Of a stretch of DNA of 64,000 nt, positions 11,909 to 22,225 are shown piece after piece; position 1 is the first letter of the stretch; every line of letters begins with the position of its first letter. Below the pieces are notes generated by a model. It made no database searches and was not told the origin of the DNA. It saw only the letters and a program-made list of their open reading frames with translations. The DNA is from Streptomyces sp. NBC_01439 (GTDB taxonomy: Bacteria; Actinomycetota; Actinomycetes; Streptomycetales; Streptomycetaceae): NCBI RefSeq assembly GCF_036227605.1, contig NZ_CP109487.1, forward strand, positions 1,984,001 through 2,048,000, read 5' to 3'. The translations under genes were made by a program, and so were the position numbers.

Positions 11909-13696
11909 TCAAGCGCCGAAGTGGGTGAGGGGACCCCAGATGTGGGCCGTGTTCCTTTCCTGGGCCAGGCGGGCTACGGCGCGGCCGGCGGCCACGGAGG
12001 GCGGGGTGTTCCGTTGCAGTTCCTCGTGCAGGTGGGTCATCAGGAGCTTCGTCTTGTCCACGTCCGGGACCGGCCACAGGGCGGCGATGACGGAGCTTGC
12101 GCCCATGGCGAGCACGGAAGCGGGCAAGTCGGCCTGTTCGGCGGATCGGGCGGTGCCCAGGCCTGCGAGGTGGCGGGCGGAGAGGACGACGGTGGCTCCC
12201 CGCCGGAGGTCGCGGGGCAGGAGTGCGGACAGCGGGGTGGGGCGGCCGAGGAGAAGGGTGGAGTTCAGCGGGGCCTCGAGGTCGAGGATGCCGTGGCCGG
12301 CCAGGTGGATCAGGTCGGCGTCCGCGATCCGCGCGACGAGCCCGCCGGGAACGGCGGCCGGGAGCGGGTCCGCTGCCCGCTGCGGAGCCTGGCCGGTTCC
12401 CGCCCCCGGGTCGGGGTCGTGCAGGATCACGGGGTCCACCCCGTGCAGTGCGGCCACCTCGCGGGCCTCGGACACCGCCATCTTGATGGGGACTCCGCCG
12501 GCCCCGTCGTGGTACCAGGGGTCGGCCACGACGAGGGTCTTGCGCCGGGTACGGGTAGAGCGCGGCCAGGTGCCGGCGAACATCAGGGCCCGGCCGGAGG
12601 GGACGACCGTGAGGTCCGTCCTGGCGCAGACCGGTACGCCGTCAACGGGGGTGGTGAACAGCGGCAGCAGCGCGCTCTCGCCCACGGGGATGATGGCGAC
12701 GCGTCCGCCTTCCAGGTCCGGCCACGCGTCGAGTACGGGCCGCCACACCGAGGCCGCAACGGCTTCGAACACCGACCGGGCCGCCAAGTCCCTGAGTCTC
12801 GGCCGTCGCTCGCCGGAGTTCAGCACGTCCCTGACGCGCTTCGCCTGCACCCGGACGGCGTCGAGGCCGAGCAGGGGCAGCGCGATGCTCTCGCACAGGG
12901 TGCGGCCGGTCTCCGTAGCCTCCAGCCGGACCGCGGTGCCGGCGCCCGCGCCGGGGACGACGTAGACGACCGAGCGGCCGGTGAGGCTGGCCGCGAGCAC
13001 GGCGGGTGCGACGGTGGCCCCTGCGTGCAGGGGCCACCTCTGTGACCCGTCGATCACATCCGTCAGATCCTGCAGGAGCATGGCGTCAGCCTGGCTGCGG
13101 AGGGCGGCGACGCCGTCGACGGACACGGCCGGCTCCCGGCTCTCCCGGGCGATCGTCTCCTGCTGGCTGCGCCGGATCGCCTGCAGTCGCCGCAGCGCGT
13201 CCTCGCCACCGAGGACGGCGGACATCTCGCGTGCGCGGGTTCGGGCGCCGAGCTGCATGGTGGCCAGGGCCTCCGCAATGATGCAGGCGGCCAGCGGGAT
13301 GCCGGCCCGGTGGGCGACGTCCAGCGACGTGTCGAGCATGACCTGCACACCCGGCAGCAAGTCTTCCGGGAAGGGCAGTGCAAGGCTCGTGCAGCGAGAT
13401 TCGACAAATGCCACTGCGGTGCAGAAGTTGAGGGCGGAGCAGGTCGCCGGGAACCACTGCCCGCACAACGCGTGCAGGCCGAAGGACGTGCGGGCGGTTT
13501 CGACGAGCAGCGGGGCGTACTCCTCGTCGCCACGGCCGAGTTCGGCGAAGCAGTGGCTCATGAGCTGCCACGATTCGGCCACGACCGCGTCCGCCCCCTG
13601 CTGCCGGCCGCGCTGGCGCAGGTCCAGGAGGGCACGGTGCACCGCTTCCCGTTCCCGTTCCCTTTTCTTGGTGCGGGCGCGGCCGAACAGAGCCAT
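11909..13696 (-). CDS. CHAT-domain-like protein lacking the catalytic cysteine
   Basis: A 595-residue protein with a C-terminal CHAT (caspase-HetF-associated with TPR) fold. The histidine motif IHLAGHG is intact (His about 468), and the region ASVLAMGASSVIAALWPVPD and the closing IWGPLTHFG are typical. Where active CHAT proteases have LSAC, this protein reads VVLSARHLAG: Arg at about 508 instead of Cys. It is therefore probably not a protease, unless another residue substitutes. The N-terminal 250 residues are helical and begin with a basic KKREREREAV segment. ATG 13696 overlaps the upstream stop by one base (TGATG), so it is translated together with the small partner gene. Confidence 0.8.
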   Translation of the reverse strand: MALFGRARTKKREREREAVHRALLDLRQRGRQQGADAVVAESWQLMSHCFAELGRGDEEYAPLLVETARTSFGLHALCGQWFPATCSALNFCTAVAFVESRCTSLALPFPEDLLPGVQVMLDTSLDVAHRAGIPLAACIIAEALATMQLGARTRAREMSAVLGGEDALRRLQAIRRSQQETIARESREPAVSVDGVAALRSQADAMLLQDLTDVIDGSQRWPLHAGATVAPAVLAASLTGRSVVYVVPGAGAGTAVRLEATETGRTLCESIALPLLGLDAVRVQAKRVRDVLNSGERRPRLRDLAARSVFEAVAASVWRPVLDAWPDLEGGRVAIIPVGESALLPLFTTPVDGVPVCARTDLTVVPSGRALMFAGTWPRSTRTRRKTLVVADPWYHDGAGGVPIKMAVSEAREVAALHGVDPVILHDPDPGAGTGQAPQRAADPLPAAVPGGLVARIADADLIHLAGHGILDLEAPLNSTLLLGRPTPLSALLPRDLRRGATVVLSARHLAGLGTARSAEQADLPASVLAMGASSVIAALWPVPDVDKTKLLMTHLHEELQRNTPPSVAAGRAVARLAQERNTAHIWGPLTHFGA

Positions 13697-14082
13697 CACC
13701 CGGCGGCGTCCGATGCGGCGGGGGCCCGGACGGCGGCCAGCACGGAGGCGATGGTGCCGGCGAAGGCCGCCGGGTCCCGCGCGGGGGTCCCGTCGTGGCC
13801 CGGCGGGCAGCTGATCTCCATGCGCACCGCAGAGCCGGGCGGACCCGCGGTGCCGGTGAACACCGGGGGTCCGGCCTCCCCGGTACGCGGTCCCGGCAAG
13901 GCCGCGGTCCGCCGGACGGAGTCGGCGATCTGTTCTCGGGCCGGGTACACGCCCACCAGGTTGGCGGAGACGTCCAGGGCCCCTTCCCCGTACGACACCC
14001 CGGCCTCCACCTCGTCGAACCCGTCCTCTTCGAGGAGGGCCCGGAGGCCGGCGGGAACGTGCACGTACATGTGCTCGCTCAT
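13696..14082 (-). CDS. small hypothetical partner of the CHAT-like protein
   Basis: A 128-residue protein I do not recognise. It begins MSEHMYVHVPAGLRALLEEDGFDEVEAGVSYGEG and has a Pro/Gly-rich second half ending in an Ala-rich helix. There is no signal peptide or obvious enzyme motif. Its stop overlaps the start of the CHAT-like gene as TGATG. In conflict systems small genes coupled this way often encode adaptor or death-like domains, but that is only inference. The start ATG at 14082 is the first after the GC-rich leader. Confidence 0.6.
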   Translation of the reverse strand: MSEHMYVHVPAGLRALLEEDGFDEVEAGVSYGEGALDVSANLVGVYPAREQIADSVRRTAALPGPRTGEAGPPVFTGTAGPPGSAVRMEISCPPGHDGTPARDPAAFAGTIASVLAAVRAPAASDAAG

Positions 14083-14280
14083 GTTCAGCACCGTAGCGAG
14101 GTACTGCCGGCGGCGCGGCCGAATCCGGACAATACGCGGGGTCCGGCTCGGGACCGCGCGCCCGCGGGGGTGCGGCAGACCGCGGACCTGCTCTCCGGGC
14201 TGAGTGTGGACGGCCGCCGGCCGAAGCAGCCGGTACGCGCATGACCCGGCCGGGCCCGAAACCACCCCGGCCGGATCCGG

Positions 14281-14699: not shown

Positions 14700-17678
14700 T
14701 CAACCGTCCATCTGGCCGCGCCTCTTGGGTAGCCCCCTGCTCCTTATGGCCCTCTCAACGCGATCCCGGCCCTGTTCCGTGAGCATGTAGTGGCCGCGGC
14801 TCTCCCCCTGGCAGAGCAGGCCCTTGGACATCAGTGAGCGCAGGATGGCCTTCATCGTCTGGCGGTTGAAGTGCAGGTCGAACGCTGCCCTCAGGTCGGA
14901 CAACCCCAGGGGGACACCTTGTCGGCAGATGTGCGCCAGCACCGCGAACTCCCAGGGGAACAGCCGCCCACCTCGCCGCCCGTACCGCTCCTTGGACTCC
15001 GCGACCCCCTGTTCAGGCCGAGTCGGTGCCACCGGTGCCGAGTCGGCGTCGTCCCAGGGCCCAGGGTTGTCGACGGCGCTGAAGACGGCCAGCTCCCGCC
15101 CGTACCCGACGGCGAGAACACCCTCTGTCATAGACAGGGCGCCCACTGCGTCGGGCAAGGTCACGGTGGCATGCGGCTCGCCGGTGTCGGCGTCCCAGAA
15201 GCGGATGGTGTTGCCGAGCGGGGAGGCGGTGACCACTACCGGGCGGCCGGACGAATCGCCGACAGCGATGATCGGCGCATGGCCGACCGGGACGAAACAC
15301 CGCGGCCGGCCGGTCTCCGCGTCCCACACGCGAAGCCGTCCGTCGTCGTACGCGGCAGCGACCAAAGATCCGCCTACCGTGGCGCCCAGGGCGACGCTCA
15401 GCACGCCCGCGCCTGCCGCCGAGAGGTTTCTGCGCAGAGTGCCGGATACGGGGTTCCACAGTCCGACGGCGCCATCGTGGTGGCCGATGACGGCCACCGG
15501 CTTCTCCCGGATCCGGCCAGCGGCAACGGCTGAGACACCCTCCCGGCCCTGCAGGCCGCCAGGGAGCGGGCGTCCGGAAGTGAGCGAGTGGACGTGCAGC
15601 CGTGCGCCGTCGCCCGGGTCGACGGCCAGCACGACGGGGCGCCGCCTCGACCCGCCCACCACCAGGACCGAGAGTGGTGAGTTCGATGGAGCACGCTGCC
15701 ACTTCCGCTCACCCGTTTCAGGCCTACGGGCGGTCAGCCTTCCGTCGTCGGTGGCAACGACCGCGACGGGGCCTTCCCGCGTCGGGCCGAGACCCACTGC
15801 CGTCACCTTGGCCGTGCCGTTGAGATGGATCCCCTCGGACCTGCCGTCCGATGTGGTCAGCACCCGCAGTCGTTCGTCGCCGCACCCGGCGGCGACCAGG
15901 ATCCGGCCGTTCACTCTCTCGACGGTAAGGGAGTTGACCGGTAGCGGGAACGTGATGCTGCCTGCGGTCTGAGCACGACGGTCGTCGAGCGCCCACACGC
16001 GCGCCGTGGAGTCGTATCCAGAACTGACCGCCACCGGGCGACCCGCGACGTCTGCAACGCTGATCTCGCGCGGCGTGTCCGTGTGGGCGGTGAACGTCTG
16101 CCGTAGACTCCCGTCCGCCAGATTCCATTCGTGCAGGGTGTGGTCGGCGGAGGCTGACAGCAGTACGTATCCGGACAGGGAGTCGAGCAGCCGAGCCCTG
16201 CGGTCTCGCTCGGTTCCGTGTCGCATGCGCTGTCTGGTGCCCTTCGGCGGGGTGGGGACGTCCGCGTTTCGGCTGTGCGGCGGGTCGGATGCCCGGGCGG
16301 AGGGGGTGAAGTACGCAGCCAGCGCGCTGATTTCACCGAAGTGTCCGGCGAGCTGGCGCAGCGGTCGTCCGCCCCGTTCCAGTTCCCACAATCGGATCGT
16401 CCCGTCCGCTCCACCGGTGACGGCCACACAGTCGGCCCCGGTGTCGACGACCGCAAGCGTGGCCATGGAATCCGGCGAGCAGTTCAGGGTGGTGAGCAGG
16501 TCGCCGCCGAGGAGGTCGAAGACACGCCCGGTGCCGTCGGCATGGGCGACGAACACGGCTGGTCGCTGGCCTACGTGAACCGCAGCGACAGCGGTGACGG
16601 GGGAGTCGCCGATCCGTACCCGGTGCTGCCGTTCCGCTCCCGTTCTGGGGTCAAGTGACAGCAGTTGCCCCTGGCCTACGACGGCGATGACGTCGTCCGC
16701 GCCGGTGTCGGTGACGACCACGGCGCCCGGCGAGGGCACGGCGGTGAAGAGCTGATGGGCCGTCCCCGTGCCCGGGTCGCGCATGCTCACCGTGCCGTCG
16801 CTGCCGTAGGTCACGAGCGTGAACGCGCCGTCCAGGTCGCACGGTTTGATCTCGCGCACCTCGCCCTGATGAGCAACCTCCTCCCACAAGATCGCACCAC
16901 TGCGCGGATCCCAGCAGCGCAGGATTCCGTCCTCTGCGGCTGTGACCACGACGAAGGGGTGGGGGCCTCCTACGGCGACGGCCGTCAGCGGCGCAGTGTG
17001 CCCGTGCGCCTCGTGGTGCAGGGTGCCGGTGGTCAGGTCCCAGACTCTGGCCACCTTGTCGCCCACCGAGGTGGTCACCGCGAACGACCACCCGTCGACG
17101 GTTCCGGTGGCCACCGACGAGACCGCCGTGTCGTGGGCGAGGGCGGCCCGGAGCGCGAAACTGATGGTGCTCGCTGTGGACCAGCGGCACTGCCACGGCG
17201 TGGGCGGCGCGTGGCGGGGGTGGTAGAGCCGGCGGCTGATGTCCGGCCACTGGTGGCGGGCGGCGTCGACCGCCAGGATGTGGCGCCGCGCATCCGGTCC
17301 GACGGAGACGTGCTCCTTGAGTGAAGCCCGGTAGACCGGCAGCGCCTGGGTCGGCGTCTCGGCCTCCAGCAGGGCTCCGAAGCCCAGTACCGAGTGGGGG
17401 TCGGCGTGGACGAGGAACTCCCAGTCCTGGAAGAGCCGCCGCAATTGACCGGACTCTGCCGCGTGTTCGGCGGCGTGCCGCAGCAGGTACGGCGAGGCGA
17501 GGTCCCAGCGCGGGGTGTTGTCCACATCGATGGGGGCGGTGAGTCGGCCGAAAACCCGGGAGGCAATGGAGCGCAGGCGTTTCTCCTGGACCGAACGGGG
17601 ACCCGCCTGCTCCGCCCCTTGGAGTTCCTCCGACGCCTCCCCTTGGATTTCGCTCATGCCGGCTCGTGCTTCGTTCAT
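14700..17678 (-). CDS. WD40 beta-propeller protein with C-terminal winged helix
   Basis: A 992-residue protein. Residues 45-165 are helical with PYLLRHAAEHAAESGQL and WEFLVHADP, the superhelical linker usually found between a NACHT/STAND ATPase and WD40 repeats in single-chain proteins. From about 175 to 880 there are roughly fourteen WD40-like blades (VWDLTTGTLHHEA, CWDPRSGAILWEE, VWDAETGRPRCF, FWDADTGEPHATV). The last 90 residues form a winged helix (LFPWEFAVLAHICRQG, QTMKAILRSLMSKGLL). It starts with ATG overlapping the hydrolase stop (ATGA). Likely role: the sensor or assembly arm for the caspase-STAND NTPase two genes upstream. Confidence 0.85.
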   Translation of the reverse strand: MNEARAGMSEIQGEASEELQGAEQAGPRSVQEKRLRSIASRVFGRLTAPIDVDNTPRWDLASPYLLRHAAEHAAESGQLRRLFQDWEFLVHADPHSVLGFGALLEAETPTQALPVYRASLKEHVSVGPDARRHILAVDAARHQWPDISRRLYHPRHAPPTPWQCRWSTASTISFALRAALAHDTAVSSVATGTVDGWSFAVTTSVGDKVARVWDLTTGTLHHEAHGHTAPLTAVAVGGPHPFVVVTAAEDGILRCWDPRSGAILWEEVAHQGEVREIKPCDLDGAFTLVTYGSDGTVSMRDPGTGTAHQLFTAVPSPGAVVVTDTGADDVIAVVGQGQLLSLDPRTGAERQHRVRIGDSPVTAVAAVHVGQRPAVFVAHADGTGRVFDLLGGDLLTTLNCSPDSMATLAVVDTGADCVAVTGGADGTIRLWELERGGRPLRQLAGHFGEISALAAYFTPSARASDPPHSRNADVPTPPKGTRQRMRHGTERDRRARLLDSLSGYVLLSASADHTLHEWNLADGSLRQTFTAHTDTPREISVADVAGRPVAVSSGYDSTARVWALDDRRAQTAGSITFPLPVNSLTVERVNGRILVAAGCGDERLRVLTTSDGRSEGIHLNGTAKVTAVGLGPTREGPVAVVATDDGRLTARRPETGERKWQRAPSNSPLSVLVVGGSRRRPVVLAVDPGDGARLHVHSLTSGRPLPGGLQGREGVSAVAAGRIREKPVAVIGHHDGAVGLWNPVSGTLRRNLSAAGAGVLSVALGATVGGSLVAAAYDDGRLRVWDAETGRPRCFVPVGHAPIIAVGDSSGRPVVVTASPLGNTIRFWDADTGEPHATVTLPDAVGALSMTEGVLAVGYGRELAVFSAVDNPGPWDDADSAPVAPTRPEQGVAESKERYGRRGGRLFPWEFAVLAHICRQGVPLGLSDLRAAFDLHFNRQTMKAILRSLMSKGLLCQGESRGHYMLTEQGRDRVERAIRSRGLPKRRGQMDG

Positions 17679-18502
17679 GCCGCCGAGGCCAGAAGTCGGG
17701 CCACTTCGGTCGACTTCAGGTAGTACTCAGCGTGATGGAATTTGAACCCCTGGTGGATGACACCGTGTTCGTCGCTGTCGACGCCGCGGAAGCTGCGTGA
17801 GATCCCCTTGATGGGAATGGCGACCGGGTCTCCGGGGTCGGCCAGATTCGCCCAGCGACCCACCGCCCGAGGTCGCACGCCCATGCCGCCCTCGGGAGTG
17901 GGAACCAACCGATCGAAGATCACCTTGGGAACGGCGAGCGGCGAGCCCACCGTCACCCACAGCGGGACGTGCGGTGTTCCCTCCTGGTGCAGCGTCTCGT
18001 ACGCCACGACGGATCCCAGGGAATGAGCGATGAGAACGTCGGGCCGATGCTCGACGATCGTTTCGTGCAGCCGCCTCTGCACTTCCTCTCGTGCCGGGCC
18101 GGGGGTCCGGTAGGCGGTGACCTCCTTGGCCCAACGGACCATGAGCCACTCCATGAGCCACTCGGGGCACGCCCAGCTCTCCGCGATGTCGGCGATGCCG
18201 TCTCGCAGCAGGGTGGTCAGCAGTCCCTGAGCCAGGCGTCCGGACTCGGCGCCGCTGTTCGAAGACTGGGTTGCGAGGAGCCCGCGCAGCGTTTCCTCCT
18301 CCGCCTGCGTAAGGTCCTCCAGTTCCGTGTCGTCGCTCTGGCGGCCCTTTTCGCGCAGCAGATCGGCATAGTAGACGACCTGTACGTCTGCGTCGTCGAC
18401 GCCCAGGTGCTTGGCCCAGACGGCGGAAAGGTTCCGGGTGGCCGTTTCGGCCGACTCCCCCGGCCGGTGGTTGCCGATTCCGTGGATTCCGACGATCTTC
18501 AC
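17675..18502 (-). CDS. alpha/beta hydrolase (lipase/esterase-like), middle gene of STAND operon
   Basis: A 275-residue alpha/beta hydrolase. The strand-loop GIHGIGN at residues 5-11 is the oxyanion-hole region, AHSLGSVVAYE carries the nucleophile (Ser about 161), ADPGDPVAIP supplies the likely acid, and HHAEYY (about 256-260) the His. The form is that of PGAP1/lipase-like intracellular hydrolases. GTG start overlaps the STAND stop (GTGA) and its own stop overlaps the WD40 start (ATGA), so the three genes are translationally coupled. In that setting it may be an effector that attacks membrane lipid or another ester, which is inference. Confidence 0.85.
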   Translation of the reverse strand: MKIVGIHGIGNHRPGESAETATRNLSAVWAKHLGVDDADVQVVYYADLLREKGRQSDDTELEDLTQAEEETLRGLLATQSSNSGAESGRLAQGLLTTLLRDGIADIAESWACPEWLMEWLMVRWAKEVTAYRTPGPAREEVQRRLHETIVEHRPDVLIAHSLGSVVAYETLHQEGTPHVPLWVTVGSPLAVPKVIFDRLVPTPEGGMGVRPRAVGRWANLADPGDPVAIPIKGISRSFRGVDSDEHGVIHQGFKFHHAEYYLKSTEVARLLASAA

Positions 18503-20511
18503 TCCGGTCCTCCGGTGGAGTAGGGAAGGGCTTTGAGGTAGTCGGCCAATCCCTGGTGGAAGAGCCGGTAGAGCGTGGACCCGTCGCTCTCGACGCCGGT
18601 ACGCAAATAGAAGCGGCCTGCCTCCAGAAGCATCCGGACGTTGTGATCGCCGACCTCGGGGTCGAACTCGGGCGCGACGCAGACAACGGCGTCCGTGGGG
18701 AACCCCTCCCCCTTGGCCCAGGCCACTGCGGCCAACACGGCCCGCAGGCGGGGGCCTTCCGGGTGCAGGCTCAGGTCGAGTTCCAGCACGCCGGGGAGCG
18801 TGAGGGGGACGCTCGCGCCCAGTTCCTCGGCGGCTTCCACGTCTGCCGGCGCCTCAAGCGTCTCCAGCGCCCGGCCGTAGATGCGTGCCACTAGGAACGG
18901 ACCCCACTCCTGTGTGGCCCGGGGGTCCTTCGTGAGGGTGGCGGCGATCGTCTGGGCCAGCGTGGTGCGGACGGAGCGCCGGGATGCATCGCAGTAATCG
19001 GGGAGTCCGGCGAGACGCAGCACGAGGTGGTGGGCAAGGTCGGCCCGCAGCTCGTCCACCGGTACGTCGTCCAGGTCGAGCAGCGTCCCGCGCCGCGCGG
19101 CCTGCCCCAACAGCGGCTGAAAGCGCGTGCCGCGCCGCGTGCCGACGAGGAGCCGGACGATGGGCTGGCCATCCGGGCGTACGCCCTCCACCAGCGGCAG
19201 CAGCAGCCGCTGCATCAGGTCGACGGGGTCGTCGGCCTCATCCAGGGCATCGAAGATCAGCGGCGGCACGGCCGGGAGCAGAGCCAGCGCCTCGATCAGA
19301 TCGGGTACGGTCCACGGCTCGGCGCTCCCGGTGTCGCGGCCGGCAAGCCGCCACTGCAGGGCCAAGGAAGTGACTACGGCTTCGAGGTCGCGGTTGCGCG
19401 CGTGGATCGCCGCCAGCATCGGGTTCGGTGAGGGAACACCGTCGGGCTGCTGCGCGGCCAGGTGCTTGCGGATGTCGGGTGCAGCCCGGACGATCTCCTC
19501 GTGCCCGGCGCAGACCAGCGACCCCAGCAGGGCCGACTTGCCGGACCCGGGTGCGCCGGTGACGACACGCAGCCCACCGCAGGCGGGGTCGTCCACCCAA
19601 GGGGCGAGTTCGGCAAGCTGCCGGGTGCGACCCACAAAGTGATCACCAACCCGATCCATGAAGTGCTCAGCGCCCAGGTCGGCGACGAACGCCCGCACAG
19701 GGGGCTCGACCGCCTGAAGCCGTTCCAACCGGGGGTCGCTGACCCAGTTCGGGTTGGCGAAGAATGGCAACTCGAGCGGCTGCGAGGTGTCGACCTTGGT
19801 GGAGTGGACCTTCTGTCTACTGTTGATCTCGCTCAGCCGGAGCTGGATCGCCGACGTCACCCGGTCCCACCGGACGTAACGCAGCAGAGGTGACGTATCG
19901 AGGCCGTTAGCGGCGATCTCTTCCAGAACTTCGGCCACAGCGGTGCTGAACGCACCGTCGTAGGCCGCACGGTCCGGACTCGTGGCCGCGATCACCCAGG
20001 CGTGCAGCTGATCGTCGGGGATCTGAGCCAACTGCGCGATCCGGGCCGTACGTCCGGCACGGCACAGGTCGACCAGGAACAGCATCGGGTGCGGCAGACC
20101 GTTGGCCTCTTGGACCCAGAGACTCACATCAGTGCCCACCCCGGTGTCGCCGCAAGACGGCACCATGGCCAACCGCTCCGAGCCCTCGGCCGCCTTGGTC
20201 CGCCCCCTGCCCGCCGGCATCGTCGTGCCGTGCGAGATCACGTGCACAATGCGGTACTGCTCTTCGCTCGCGTCGGTCCAACTGCGCCGCACGGTCTTGC
20301 GGTCGGGCTCTCGCACCGCTGTGACGTCGTACGCGAGCTTCGAGTAGGCCTGCTCCAACCTGGACATCAGGTCCGGCACGAAGGGGAGTTCATCCCACCC
20401 GTGCACACCGGGTAGCGGTTCCTCGCCCTCAGCAACAGCCGGGGCGAACCGGCTCACGCCCATCAGCAGCGCCCGCGACGGATCAGCCCCTCCGGGCGTC
20501 GCATCCCCCAT
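18499..20511 (-). CDS. caspase-like peptidase fused to STAND/NACHT-type NTPase
   Basis: A 670-residue two-domain protein. Residues 10-240 form a caspase-like (C14) domain with the His motif HVISHGT (His94) and the Cys motif FLVDLCRAG (Cys150). A linker PNWVSDPRLERL leads to a STAND-type P-loop NTPase: HFVGRTRQLAEL, Walker A GAPGSGKS (319-326) and Walker B LIFDALDEAD (418-427). The C-terminus ends at RLFHQGLADYLKALP, the point where single-chain relatives pass into a helical linker and WD40 repeats. Those parts are in a separate gene here. AGGAG precedes the ATG by four bases. First gene of the operon; likely a ligand-triggered protease of a defence or self/non-self system. Confidence 0.88.
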   Translation of the reverse strand: MGDATPGGADPSRALLMGVSRFAPAVAEGEEPLPGVHGWDELPFVPDLMSRLEQAYSKLAYDVTAVREPDRKTVRRSWTDASEEQYRIVHVISHGTTMPAGRGRTKAAEGSERLAMVPSCGDTGVGTDVSLWVQEANGLPHPMLFLVDLCRAGRTARIAQLAQIPDDQLHAWVIAATSPDRAAYDGAFSTAVAEVLEEIAANGLDTSPLLRYVRWDRVTSAIQLRLSEINSRQKVHSTKVDTSQPLELPFFANPNWVSDPRLERLQAVEPPVRAFVADLGAEHFMDRVGDHFVGRTRQLAELAPWVDDPACGGLRVVTGAPGSGKSALLGSLVCAGHEEIVRAAPDIRKHLAAQQPDGVPSPNPMLAAIHARNRDLEAVVTSLALQWRLAGRDTGSAEPWTVPDLIEALALLPAVPPLIFDALDEADDPVDLMQRLLLPLVEGVRPDGQPIVRLLVGTRRGTRFQPLLGQAARRGTLLDLDDVPVDELRADLAHHLVLRLAGLPDYCDASRRSVRTTLAQTIAATLTKDPRATQEWGPFLVARIYGRALETLEAPADVEAAEELGASVPLTLPGVLELDLSLHPEGPRLRAVLAAVAWAKGEGFPTDAVVCVAPEFDPEVGDHNVRMLLEAGRFYLRTGVESDGSTLYRLFHQGLADYLKALPYSTGGPE

Positions 20512-20935: not shown

Positions 20936-22129
20936 TCACCGCTCGCCCGCCAGGTCCAGATCACCGGCCCTGGACCCACTCGCCTCCGGTTCCACCGGCT
21001 TCGGGCGACGCCACGGGTGGGCGATCGGACGGGCGATGGGGCGCCACCACGGATCCACGGGCAGCGTTCCGGCAGGCTCGAAGGGCTCGCCCGGGCGCGG
21101 GAGCGCCACCAGCTGGTCGGCCCCCTCCGCAGCGTCGACCGTCCACTCCCCCGGCTCCGCCCAGGCGTGCAGGGCCAGGTTGAAGGTGCCCCAGTGGATC
21201 GGCAGCATCGTCCCGCGCGGGACGCCGCCCTGCAGGTCGAGGTGGGCGCGCATGCCCTCCTCCGGCGTCATGTGGATGTCGGGCCAGTACTCCGAGTAGG
21301 CGCCGATCTGGATCATGGTGGCGTCGAAGGGCCCGTGCTCGGCACCGATCTCCTCGAAGCCGGGGAAGTATCCGGTGTCCCCGCTGTGGTAAATCCGGTG
21401 CTCGGCGCCCGCGACGACCCAGGACGCCCACAGGGTGTGCTGCTGGTTGCGCAGGCCGCGGCCGCAGAAGTGCCGGGCGGGGGTGGCCGTGAGCGAGAGG
21501 CCGGCGATCTCGGTGCTCTCGTTCCAGTCCAGCTCGCGCAGCCGGTCGGCCGGAACGCCCCAGCGTTCCAGGTGCGCGCCGACGCCCAGCGGGACGGCGA
21601 AGACCGTGTCCGTCCCGACCAGCGCCTTGATCGTCGGCAGGTCGAGGTGGTCGTAGTGGTCGTGCGAGATGACCACGACGTCGACCGTGCCCAGCGAGGC
21701 CAGCGGAACCGGTACGGGGTGCAGTCGCTTGGGGCCGGCGAAGGGGAAGGGGGAGCATCTCTCGCCCCACACCGGATCGAACAGCACCCGGCGCCCGTCG
21801 ATCTCCGCGAGCACGCTGGAGTGTCCCATCCAGGTCAGCCGCAGGCCGCTCGCGGGCGGCTTCGCCAGGTCCGCGAGGGTCGTCGGGTGGACCGGGATCG
21901 GTGCGGCGGGGCTGCGCCGCTCCCGCTGCTCCCGATGGAAGTAGATCTTCGCGAACTCCGCCATCGACCCCGAGGGCCGGTTCCGGGCCCCGACCGGGTT
22001 CTGGAAGACGCCGTCGGCGAAGTTCGGCGAACGGCGGATCCGCTCCAGCCGGGCACCGGACGGGTCCGCACCGAAGGCTTCGGGCCGCAGGGCACGCAGC
22101 CGCGGACGCAGGGGACGGGAGCCGGTCAA
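20936..22129 (-). CDS. metallo-beta-lactamase-fold hydrolase (NAPE-PLD/UlaG-like)
   Basis: A protein of about 397 residues with the metallo-beta-lactamase fold. The metal site is SHDHYDHLD (HxHxDH), with ATPARHF, YHSGDTGYF and LPIHWGTFNL completing the ligands. The preceding TWMGHSSVLAEIDGRRVLFDPVW is typical of the NAPE-PLD/RomA group, which cleaves phosphodiesters or lipids. The start is uncertain: a TTG at 22129 has GGAGG four bases upstream, whereas ATGs at 22177 and 22189 have weaker sites. No signal peptide is clear. Substrate unknown. Confidence 0.85.
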   Translation of the reverse strand: MTGSRPLRPRLRALRPEAFGADPSGARLERIRRSPNFADGVFQNPVGARNRPSGSMAEFAKIYFHREQRERRSPAAPIPVHPTTLADLAKPPASGLRLTWMGHSSVLAEIDGRRVLFDPVWGERCSPFPFAGPKRLHPVPVPLASLGTVDVVVISHDHYDHLDLPTIKALVGTDTVFAVPLGVGAHLERWGVPADRLRELDWNESTEIAGLSLTATPARHFCGRGLRNQQHTLWASWVVAGAEHRIYHSGDTGYFPGFEEIGAEHGPFDATMIQIGAYSEYWPDIHMTPEEGMRAHLDLQGGVPRGTMLPIHWGTFNLALHAWAEPGEWTVDAAEGADQLVALPRPGEPFEPAGTLPVDPWWRPIARPIAHPWRRPKPVEPEASGSRAGDLDLAGER

Positions 22130-22225
22130 AGCGCCTCCAGGGAGGATGGGGTCAGGATGGTCGTGCTCTACGACCATCCCAACGCACACCGGCCCCGAAG
22201 GATTCCGCTTCCGGCTCCTCGCCCG

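What the first reader, a model, noticed from the sequence alone, without database searches (positions are those of the whole stretch)
14700..20511. Split caspase-STAND signalling system with an alpha/beta hydrolase inserted between its halves
Seen: three leftward genes overlap by four bases each (GTGA, ATGA). The first has a caspase-like domain (His94, Cys150) and a P-loop NTPase and stops at LFHQGLADYLKALP. The third begins with the helical linker (PYLLRHAAEHA, WEFLVHADP) and WD40 repeats that in single-chain actinobacterial STAND proteins follow directly. Between them is an intact serine hydrolase gene. Known: caspase and hydrolase effectors coupled to STAND ATPases with WD40 sensors act in bacterial conflict and anti-phage systems. 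Inferred: a two-chain STAND receptor with two possible effectors (protease and lipase), plus a winged helix on the sensor. I do not know of this exact arrangement as a described system.
Basis: partly seen in the sequence, partly recalled or inferred. Interest (0 to 1): 0.87.

Follow-up and report, generated by a model that had tools for sequence, protein, structure and literature searches.

The report
Two-chain caspase sensor with lipase partner
A Streptomyces operon encodes a bacterial relative of the animal apoptosome, a WD40 sensor plus an ATPase carrying a caspase, cut into two genes with a lipase-like enzyme gene between them; the caspase-hydrolase pairing turns out to be a common module in this genus rather than a one-off.

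Summary
In detail: three leftward ORFs (670, 275, 992 aa) with 4-base overlaps, an intact caspase dyad (H94/C150), Walker motifs and a serine-hydrolase triad (S161/D225/H256).
The reading needs reframing: the hydrolase is not an odd insert but the regular partner of caspase-STAND-WD40 chains. Of 83 distinct Streptomyces loci, 71 of 75 caspase-bearing, unbroken ones have an alpha/beta hydrolase beside the chain (66 of the window's family, 5 LCAT family); none of 3 trypsin-bearing ones has, and 2 of those carry Trypco1. Most chains are fused; the split lies in a variable linker and recurs on the tree. Hydrolase-in-the-middle plus a winged-helix-like sensor tail marks one clade (4 loci). STAND and hydrolase trees agree (r = 0.92).
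The hydrolase is homologous to one paired with VMAP proteins (caspase-hydrolase pairing: Kaur 2020), so this is a new variant of a known kind: that pair on another sensor chassis.
Most likely it is a cell-death-type defence in which the WD40/STAND sensor activates the caspase, which activates or acts with a phospholipase-like enzyme. Function is inferred, not shown.

The parts
18499..20511 (-). ORF1: caspase domain + STAND-type P-loop NTPase, 670 aa
   Evidence: ORF; AAA_16 8.8e-7, below gathering; AF2 model, pLDDT 89.5; fold matches
19726..20511 (-). caspase (C14-like, paracaspase-like) domain, residues about 1-262
19534..19557 (-). Walker A (GAPGSGKS, residues 319-326)
   Evidence: G319, G322, G324, K325, S326 invariant in 79 sequences
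19237..19251 (-). Walker B region (residues 421-425, DALDE)
   Evidence: D421, D424, E425 invariant in 79 sequences
18499..18502 (-). GTGA overlap of ORF1 stop and ORF2 start
17675..18502 (-). ORF2: alpha/beta hydrolase, 275 aa; triad S161 (18020-18022), D225 (17828-17830), H256 (17735-17737)
   Evidence: invariant in 106; AF2 model pLDDT 90.7, pTM 0.90; lipase / DDHD / LCAT-type folds
17675..17678 (-). ATGA overlap of ORF2 stop and ORF3 start
14700..17678 (-). ORF3: helical linker + WD40 repeats + winged-helix-like tail, 992 aa
17175..17567 (-). linker that follows the NTPase directly in fused homologues (residues about 38-168)
14979..17168 (-). WD40 repeat region (residues about 171-900)
   Evidence: (PF00400 1.9e-19 and other propeller models)
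14703..14978 (-). winged-helix-like C-terminal tail (residues about 901-992), seen only in the window's clade
   Evidence: by eye from the sequence and from the tails of L031-L033; PADLOC LmuC only 0.011; no fold was predicted

Best explanation
This is a three-gene caspase-lipase STAND/WD40 system. ORF3 (WD40 propellers) is the sensor and ORF1 (STAND NTPase with an N-terminal caspase) the signalling ATPase; together they rebuild the single chain found in most relatives. A trigger bound by the WD40 part lets the NTPase exchange nucleotide and oligomerise, which brings the caspase domains together (apoptosome-like; inferred). The caspase then acts with, and most likely on, its dedicated partner, the alpha/beta hydrolase of ORF2, a lipase/phospholipase-like enzyme, so that membrane lipid hydrolysis kills or arrests the cell before an invader spreads (inferred). 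Shown here: anatomy, intact active sites, two-halves-of-one-chain relationship, near-obligate pairing of caspase-STAND chains with a hydrolase, co-inheritance, replacement of the hydrolase by an LCAT-family one, homology to hydrolases beside VMAP genes, carriage on some plasmids. Not shown: trigger, oligomerisation, proteolysis of the hydrolase, lipase activity, phage defence.
Against: No experimental data. No PADLOC model matches as a system component, and the flanking genes scanned are ordinary apart from a CHAT protein. No complex of ORF1 and ORF3 was modelled. No convincing autoinhibitory insertion was found in the hydrolase: pLDDT drops to 63-66 over residues 81-100 and below 50 at 90-92, just before invariant G93, but residues 81-85 are gaps in most relatives; pro-lipase activation thus has only this weak hint. 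4 of 75 unbroken caspase-bearing loci have no hydrolase (one of them, L097, has no STAND NTPase hit either). The converse is weaker: only 45 of the 60 best and 66 of 122 typed hydrolase rows lie within 8 kb of a listed STAND hit, and 5 of 40 hydrolase-centred loci (L034, L054, L067, L068, L069) show no caspase or NTPase, L034 and L068 being near contig ends. Pfam saw a caspase in only 1 (L088) of the 3 VMAP proteins with such a hydrolase, and my STAND-caspase profile hit no VMAP protein.
Confidence: 0.5

Rival explanations
1. Two parallel effectors: the activated STAND platform recruits both caspase and hydrolase, and the hydrolase is switched on by assembly or proximity, not by proteolysis.
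For: The hydrolase has no clear gating insertion; in other STAND systems effectors are activated by oligomerisation (recalled); fungal NLRs carry a SesB-type hydrolase directly on NACHT-WD40 chains (PMC4986451, passages).
Against: The hydrolase seems to track the protease type and not merely the STAND chassis: 0 of 3 trypsin-STAND loci have it, which suggests a link to the caspase; n is small, and L100 and L103 look like close relatives of each other.
Confidence: 0.27
2. Developmental or stress signalling rather than defence: a programmed-cell-death or regulatory module of Streptomyces differentiation; the winged helix of ORF3 would give a transcriptional output.
For: The window's clade has a winged-helix-like tail; the host is a multicellular actinomycete; the flanking genes scanned are mostly ordinary.
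Against: Patchy distribution (117 of 392 genus genomes for the caspase-STAND; 17 of 396 phylum genomes for the hydrolase, 7 of them of the window's genus) and carriage on plasmids next to transposases fit a mobile conflict system better; the tail was not seen in L039, L043, L046.
Confidence: 0.13
3. The hydrolase is a counter-regulator (for example removing a lipid signal or lipid anchor from the complex) and the caspase is the only killer.
For: A dedicated co-inherited enzyme could equally be an off-switch; nothing here tests the sign of its effect.
Against: A different hydrolase family (LCAT) occupies the partner place in 5 loci, easier to explain if lipid hydrolysis is the output.
Confidence: 0.07
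4. The split is decay or a sequencing error of a normal fused chain with a stray hydrolase gene.
For: Fused chains are the rule: only 10 of 83 loci have NTPase and linker in different frames, and one of those 10 (L116) comes from a genome listed as 55% complete and has its caspase in a further frame.
Against: Same order in 3 other genomes, with 4-base overlaps at both junctions in L031 and L033 and at the first in L032; all active-site residues intact; 27 database homologues at 56-83% identity with lengths of 626-785 aa, too short to hold the WD40 part, 18 of them on a contig whose length equals that of a close hydrolase homologue.
Confidence: 0.02

Closest known systems
Caspase-bearing VMAP (vWA-MoxR-associated protein) ternary systems, Kaur et al. 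2020 (PMC7159879, passages read)
   Same: A caspase fused to the core protein and a neighbouring alpha/beta-hydrolase gene, stated there to be always present when the caspase is. Hydrolases found here beside 3 of 20 VMAP genes are homologous to ORF2; in L088 the hydrolase gene overlaps a VMAP gene with a Peptidase_C14 domain by 4 bases. The trypsin-Trypco1 alternative is seen on the STAND chassis too.
   Different: No VMAP-C found here; the chassis is a STAND NTPase with WD40 repeats, and in the window it is split into two genes.
Metacaspase-NACHT-WD40 chains (Asplund-Samuelsson et al. 2012, PMC3501461, passages read)
   Same: Same domain order caspase-NTPase-WD40; described there as widely distributed.
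   Different: The passages read name no dedicated alpha/beta-hydrolase partner and no split form; in the window the chain is two polypeptides with a winged-helix-like tail.
Canu caspase-nuclease systems and nuclease-protease pairs (PMC12799240, passages read)
   Same: A protease paired with a separate enzyme gene, the pair recurring in unrelated immune systems; there the protease was shown to activate the enzyme.
   Different: Partner is an alpha/beta hydrolase, not an MBL-fold nuclease; activation by cleavage is untested here.
Fungal NLRs with SesB-like hydrolase-NACHT-WD40 (PMC4986451, passages read)
   Same: Lipase-type alpha/beta hydrolase coupled to a NACHT-WD40 receptor.
   Different: There the hydrolase is the N-terminal domain of the receptor itself and no caspase is named in the passages read; homology of the hydrolases was not tested.

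Membership tests
Caspase-STAND-WD40 (metacaspase-NACHT-WD40) chains | caspase fold with His/Cys dyad | tested here: met
Caspase-STAND-WD40 (metacaspase-NACHT-WD40) chains | STAND-type NTPase following the caspase | tested here: met
   Walker A and B invariant; Foldseek's first match is the plant NLR Sr35, 7xc2, E 6.9e-8 though TM-score 0.24 over the whole chain, with ORC/Cdc6 ATPases next; Pfam AAA_16, NPHP3_N and nSTAND1 below gathering
Caspase-STAND-WD40 (metacaspase-NACHT-WD40) chains | WD40 repeats on the same polypeptide | tested here: not met
   repeats are on a separate gene, ORF3; most relatives are fused. Related by descent, not by architecture
VMAP ternary systems | VMAP-C domain protein | tested here: not met
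   no VMAP model among the hits for ORF1 and ORF2; for ORF3 the best 25 of 33 families were shown, none of them VMAP
VMAP ternary systems | MoxR and vWA genes in the operon | tested here: inconclusive
   no such domain in the 10 neighbouring genes scanned; not every flanking gene was scanned
Caspase + alpha/beta-hydrolase pair of Kaur 2020 | neighbouring alpha/beta-hydrolase homologous to the VMAP partner | tested here: met
   profile without VMAP sequences: E 2.4e-10, 3.8e-6, 5.5e-4 for three VMAP-linked hydrolases among 809 proteins; a caspase was seen by Pfam in only one of the three VMAP proteins, L088
Canu | caspase-activated MBL-fold nuclease | tested here: not met
   partner ORF2 is an alpha/beta hydrolase. 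An MBL-fold gene lies upstream (20936-22189); whether one lies beside L031-L033 was not tested
Avs / other PADLOC STAND systems | match to a defence-system model | tested here: inconclusive
   PADLOC gives only partial hits: mad8 0.0033 and PtuA 0.0088 on ORF1, HEAT-ARM_XIII 4.4e-9 and LmuC 0.011 on ORF3
[quoted passage not shown]
   Pfam hits PGAP1 0.0016 and Abhydrolase_6 0.01 are below gathering
[quoted passage not shown]
   needs an assay

The most novel reading that the evidence does not exclude
Caspase and lipase form a portable protease/pro-enzyme pair, the lipid counterpart of the nuclease-protease pairs: one caspase-lipase unit has been moved between at least two sensor chassis (VMAP ternary and STAND-WD40), can swap its lipase (ORF2 family for LCAT family), and alternates with trypsin-Trypco1 on the same chassis. 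The caspase cleaves and activates the lipase, giving a bacterial caspase-triggered membrane-lysis pathway without a gasdermin. The conserved D148 two residues before C150, as in MALT1 (recalled), would make it Arg-specific.
Probability: 0.35. Interest if true: 0.85.

Novelty: new variant of a known kind. Interest (0 to 1): 0.62.

Why it matters
It links two separate descriptions, the caspase-NACHT-WD40 chains and the caspase/alpha-beta-hydrolase pair of VMAP systems, by showing that related hydrolases accompany both chassis. It suggests a simple rule (caspase with a lipase-type hydrolase, trypsin with Trypco1) that predicts partners across chassis, and it offers naturally split two-chain forms that can be expressed and reconstituted piece by piece, so that caspase-to-lipase signalling in a bacterial apoptosome-like system becomes directly testable.

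Tried and rejected
Hydrolase as a random insert: rejected, it is the regular partner. Hydrolase loop as a caspase site: residues 81-100 are of low confidence (below 50 at 90-92), residues 81-85 are gaps in 81 to 100 of 106 relatives, G93 and R100 are invariant in 106, and R100 starts or lies in a predicted helix; no cleavage can be argued from this. CHAT gene downstream (11909-13702) as part of the system: no CHAT hit among the neighbours printed for L031-L033. MBL gene upstream as a canu-type nuclease: a Lactamase_B_2 protein by Pfam, its conservation beside the relatives not tested. Plant EDS1-family link: SAG101 appears at E 0.55 in a profile search of solved structures, not significant. 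The search for related loci with ORF2 in genome contigs gave no locus. PDB sequence searches with ORF1 and with its alignment gave nothing of use. Phage records: no hydrolase match. Literature: eight searches that ran listed no paper that I could see to treat a caspase-STAND-WD40 + alpha/beta-hydrolase pair in bacteria; only open-licence PMC papers are covered, listings are capped, and only passages of six papers were read (PMC7159879; PMC8195603; PMC3501461; PMC12799240; PMC10907252; PMC4986451).

Counts and drops: the STAND list was typed down to E 5.9e-15 (84 rows); two rows that are second pieces of chains already listed (G235:C89, G283:C1) were left out, and G279 (6.8e-15) falls just outside the cut. 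The hydrolase list holds 122 of the rows listed, weaker ones partly left out, which can only lower the co-location count. G179:C2 (same scores as G179:C1, taken as a copy) was not fetched, hence 83 loci. The query is itself a caspase-STAND, so the sample is enriched for caspases. Each scored only a few candidates a genome, so genome counts are lower bounds. The gene caller is home-made; starts are approximate. In one search it lost the hydrolase in 4 of 40 loci (found by profile). For the overlap count 20 loci with the hydrolase directly downstream were used and L037, L042, L051, L054, L056, L059 left out as truncated or broken calls. The trees left out L056 and the 5 loci without all four domains: 36 of 42; they are quick trees with SH-aLRT support only. 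The profile h1 had VMAP hydrolases in its own building set, so those E-values are inflated; one search is the clean test.
Full report

Two halves of one chain. In fused relatives the linker of ORF3 follows the end of the ORF1 NTPase within a few tens of residues. L041 (fused) and L043 (split) are sister loci with similar flanking genes; the fused chain reads LFHEGLAQWL, then a variable Gly/Pro-rich stretch, then ALYARLLESVPRD, and the split lies in that stretch. In a tree of 36 loci the split state needs four changes; well-supported branches force four on the STAND tree and three on the hydrolase tree. Some of these could be re-fusions, so at least two independent fissions is the safer statement (inference). 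In the wider set 10 of 83 loci have NTPase and linker in different frames, including L104 and L108; L116 is doubtful (genome listed as 55% complete; caspase in a further frame). Fission at one boundary with fused homologues as 'Rosetta stones' supports a non-covalent two-chain receptor; contact itself was not modelled.

The hydrolase is the regular partner. The hydrolase query matched in 189 of 392 genomes of the genus and the caspase-STAND in 117 of 392. Of the strongest STAND hits, 33 of 35 (E at most 1e-40) and 49 of 55 (1e-20) have a hydrolase hit within 8 kb on the same contig; the two misses at 1e-40 (G318:C38, G264:C125) lie at contig ends. The 83 distinct loci down to E 5.9e-15 divide as follows: caspase with ORF2-type hydrolase 66; caspase with an LCAT-family hydrolase 5 (PF02450 2e-8 to 1e-12); caspase without hydrolase 4 (L096, L097, L102, L105; L097 has no STAND NTPase hit); caspase at a contig end 2; trypsin without hydrolase 3 (Trypsin_2 8.6e-11 to 3.7e-14); neither protease detected 3, two of them (L101, L123) with the hydrolase and with caspase-like motifs. 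In the 68 loci with the ORF2-type hydrolase it lies on the same strand downstream of the NTPase in 38 (the window's clade included), upstream in 23, on the other strand in 7, at most 3.3 kb from the nearest recognised domain. In 14 of 20 cleanly called downstream cases the overlap is again 4 bases (values, counted).

The converse is weaker. Of 122 typed hydrolase rows 66 lie within 8 kb of a listed STAND hit, 45 of the best 60. Of 40 hydrolase-centred loci 35 show caspase, NTPase and linker; L034 and L068 lie near contig ends, L054, L067 and L069 show none.

Order and clade. The order ORF1, hydrolase, ORF3 was seen only in the window and L031-L033; of the other split loci L039, L043 and L046 have the hydrolase last, and in L104 and L108 the halves are next to each other. 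The four form one fully supported clade whose sister L037 is fused with the hydrolase downstream. All four have a winged-helix-like tail; L039, L043 and L046 do not. The database holds 27 ORF1 homologues of 626-785 aa at 56-83% identity, 18 of 27 on a contig of the same length as that of a close hydrolase homologue.

Co-inheritance. Patristic distances from the STAND and hydrolase trees correlate at r = 0.92 over 36 loci, none of 5000 permutations above 0.39; without the four most distant loci r = 0.90, again 0 of 5000. This was not corrected for the species tree.

Link to VMAP systems. Kaur et al. 2020 state that a caspase on VMAP is always accompanied by a neighbouring alpha/beta-hydrolase gene, and trypsin by Trypco1 or Trypco2 (PMC7159879, passages). 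Of 20 VMAP loci, chosen mostly for long open frames, 3 (L083, L088, L090) have a hydrolase gene directly upstream of VMAP with a 4-base overlap. In L088 the VMAP protein has Peptidase_C14 3.4e-12 and VMAP-C 2.8e-36; in L083 and L090 Pfam shows VMAP domains but no caspase, and my STAND-caspase profile hit none of the three. A profile of short STAND-type hydrolases, without any VMAP sequence, finds these three at 2.4e-10, 3.8e-6 and 5.5e-4; of 809 proteins searched only the weakest 18 rows were printed and nothing followed these. On the STAND-WD40 chassis two of three trypsin-bearing loci carry Trypco1 with a 4-base overlap; these two, L100 and L103, look like close relatives. One exception: L035 has Trypco1 beside a caspase chain with a hydrolase gene on the other strand. 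So the protease-partner rule appears on both chassis, on small numbers for trypsin.

Distribution and mobility. Over the phylum the hydrolase query matched in 17 of 396 genomes, 7 of them of the window's genus; only the window and G067 score below 1e-15. Database hits include Kitasatospora, Amycolatopsis, Kutzneria, Lentzea and Embleya. Matches occur in 35 plasmid records (18 Streptomyces), 11 of them covering at least 80% of the query; three were opened, and in L140 and L142 the caspase-STAND chain and the hydrolase stand alone between a Tn3 transposase and a tyrosine recombinase. No phage record matched.

How it most likely works. Sensing by WD40, NTPase-driven assembly and caspase proximity are inferred from STAND proteins and the apoptosome (recalled). 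That the hydrolase is a lipase-type output follows from fold, triad and its exchange for an LCAT-family protein. That the caspase switches it on by cleavage is an analogy with the nuclease-protease pairs and canu (PMC12799240, passages), where it was shown by experiment; here no gating loop could be made out with confidence. Defence is favoured over development because of patchiness and plasmid carriage, but there are no phage data and PADLOC has no model for it.

Novelty. The parts are known kinds. New, as far as eight searches of an open-licence library show, are the near-obligate pairing of caspase-STAND-WD40 chains with this hydrolase family, its replacement by LCAT-family proteins, the recurrent split, and the homology of the partner with hydrolases of VMAP loci.

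Noticed in passing
window 13696-14091(-) and 11909-13702(-): A small ORF (131 aa, no Pfam hit) precedes a CHAT-protease-like protein (PF12770 4e-23) with a slight overlap; it looks like a second peptidase-type conflict gene pair just downstream of the system.
   Followed up: partly
window 20936-22189(-): An MBL-fold (Lactamase_B_2) protein lies 424 bases upstream on the same strand; ordinary by Pfam, not shown to belong to the system.
   Followed up: partly
L065 (G041:C163) and L092 (G069:C1): A caspase-STAND-WD40 + hydrolase system lies within about 6 kb of a VMAP-C gene; the two loci are sisters in the tree.
   Followed up: partly
L096:5482-9591(-): A single 1369-aa chain reads phosphorylase (PNP) - caspase - NACHT - GT4-conflict glycosyltransferase.
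   Followed up: no
L104 and L108: Two further naturally split caspase-NTPase / WD40-side pairs, each beside an LCAT-family gene.
   Followed up: partly
L035:10072-10410(+): Trypco1 (4e-23) sits beside a caspase-bearing STAND chain, an exception to the trypsin-Trypco1 rule.
   Followed up: no
L141 (Arthrobacter plasmid pHiyo8-1): On a conjugative plasmid the hydrolase homologue is annotated as two short ORFs and caspase and NTPase hits lie in separate frames, so the system may be decayed or the sequence faulty.
   Followed up: no
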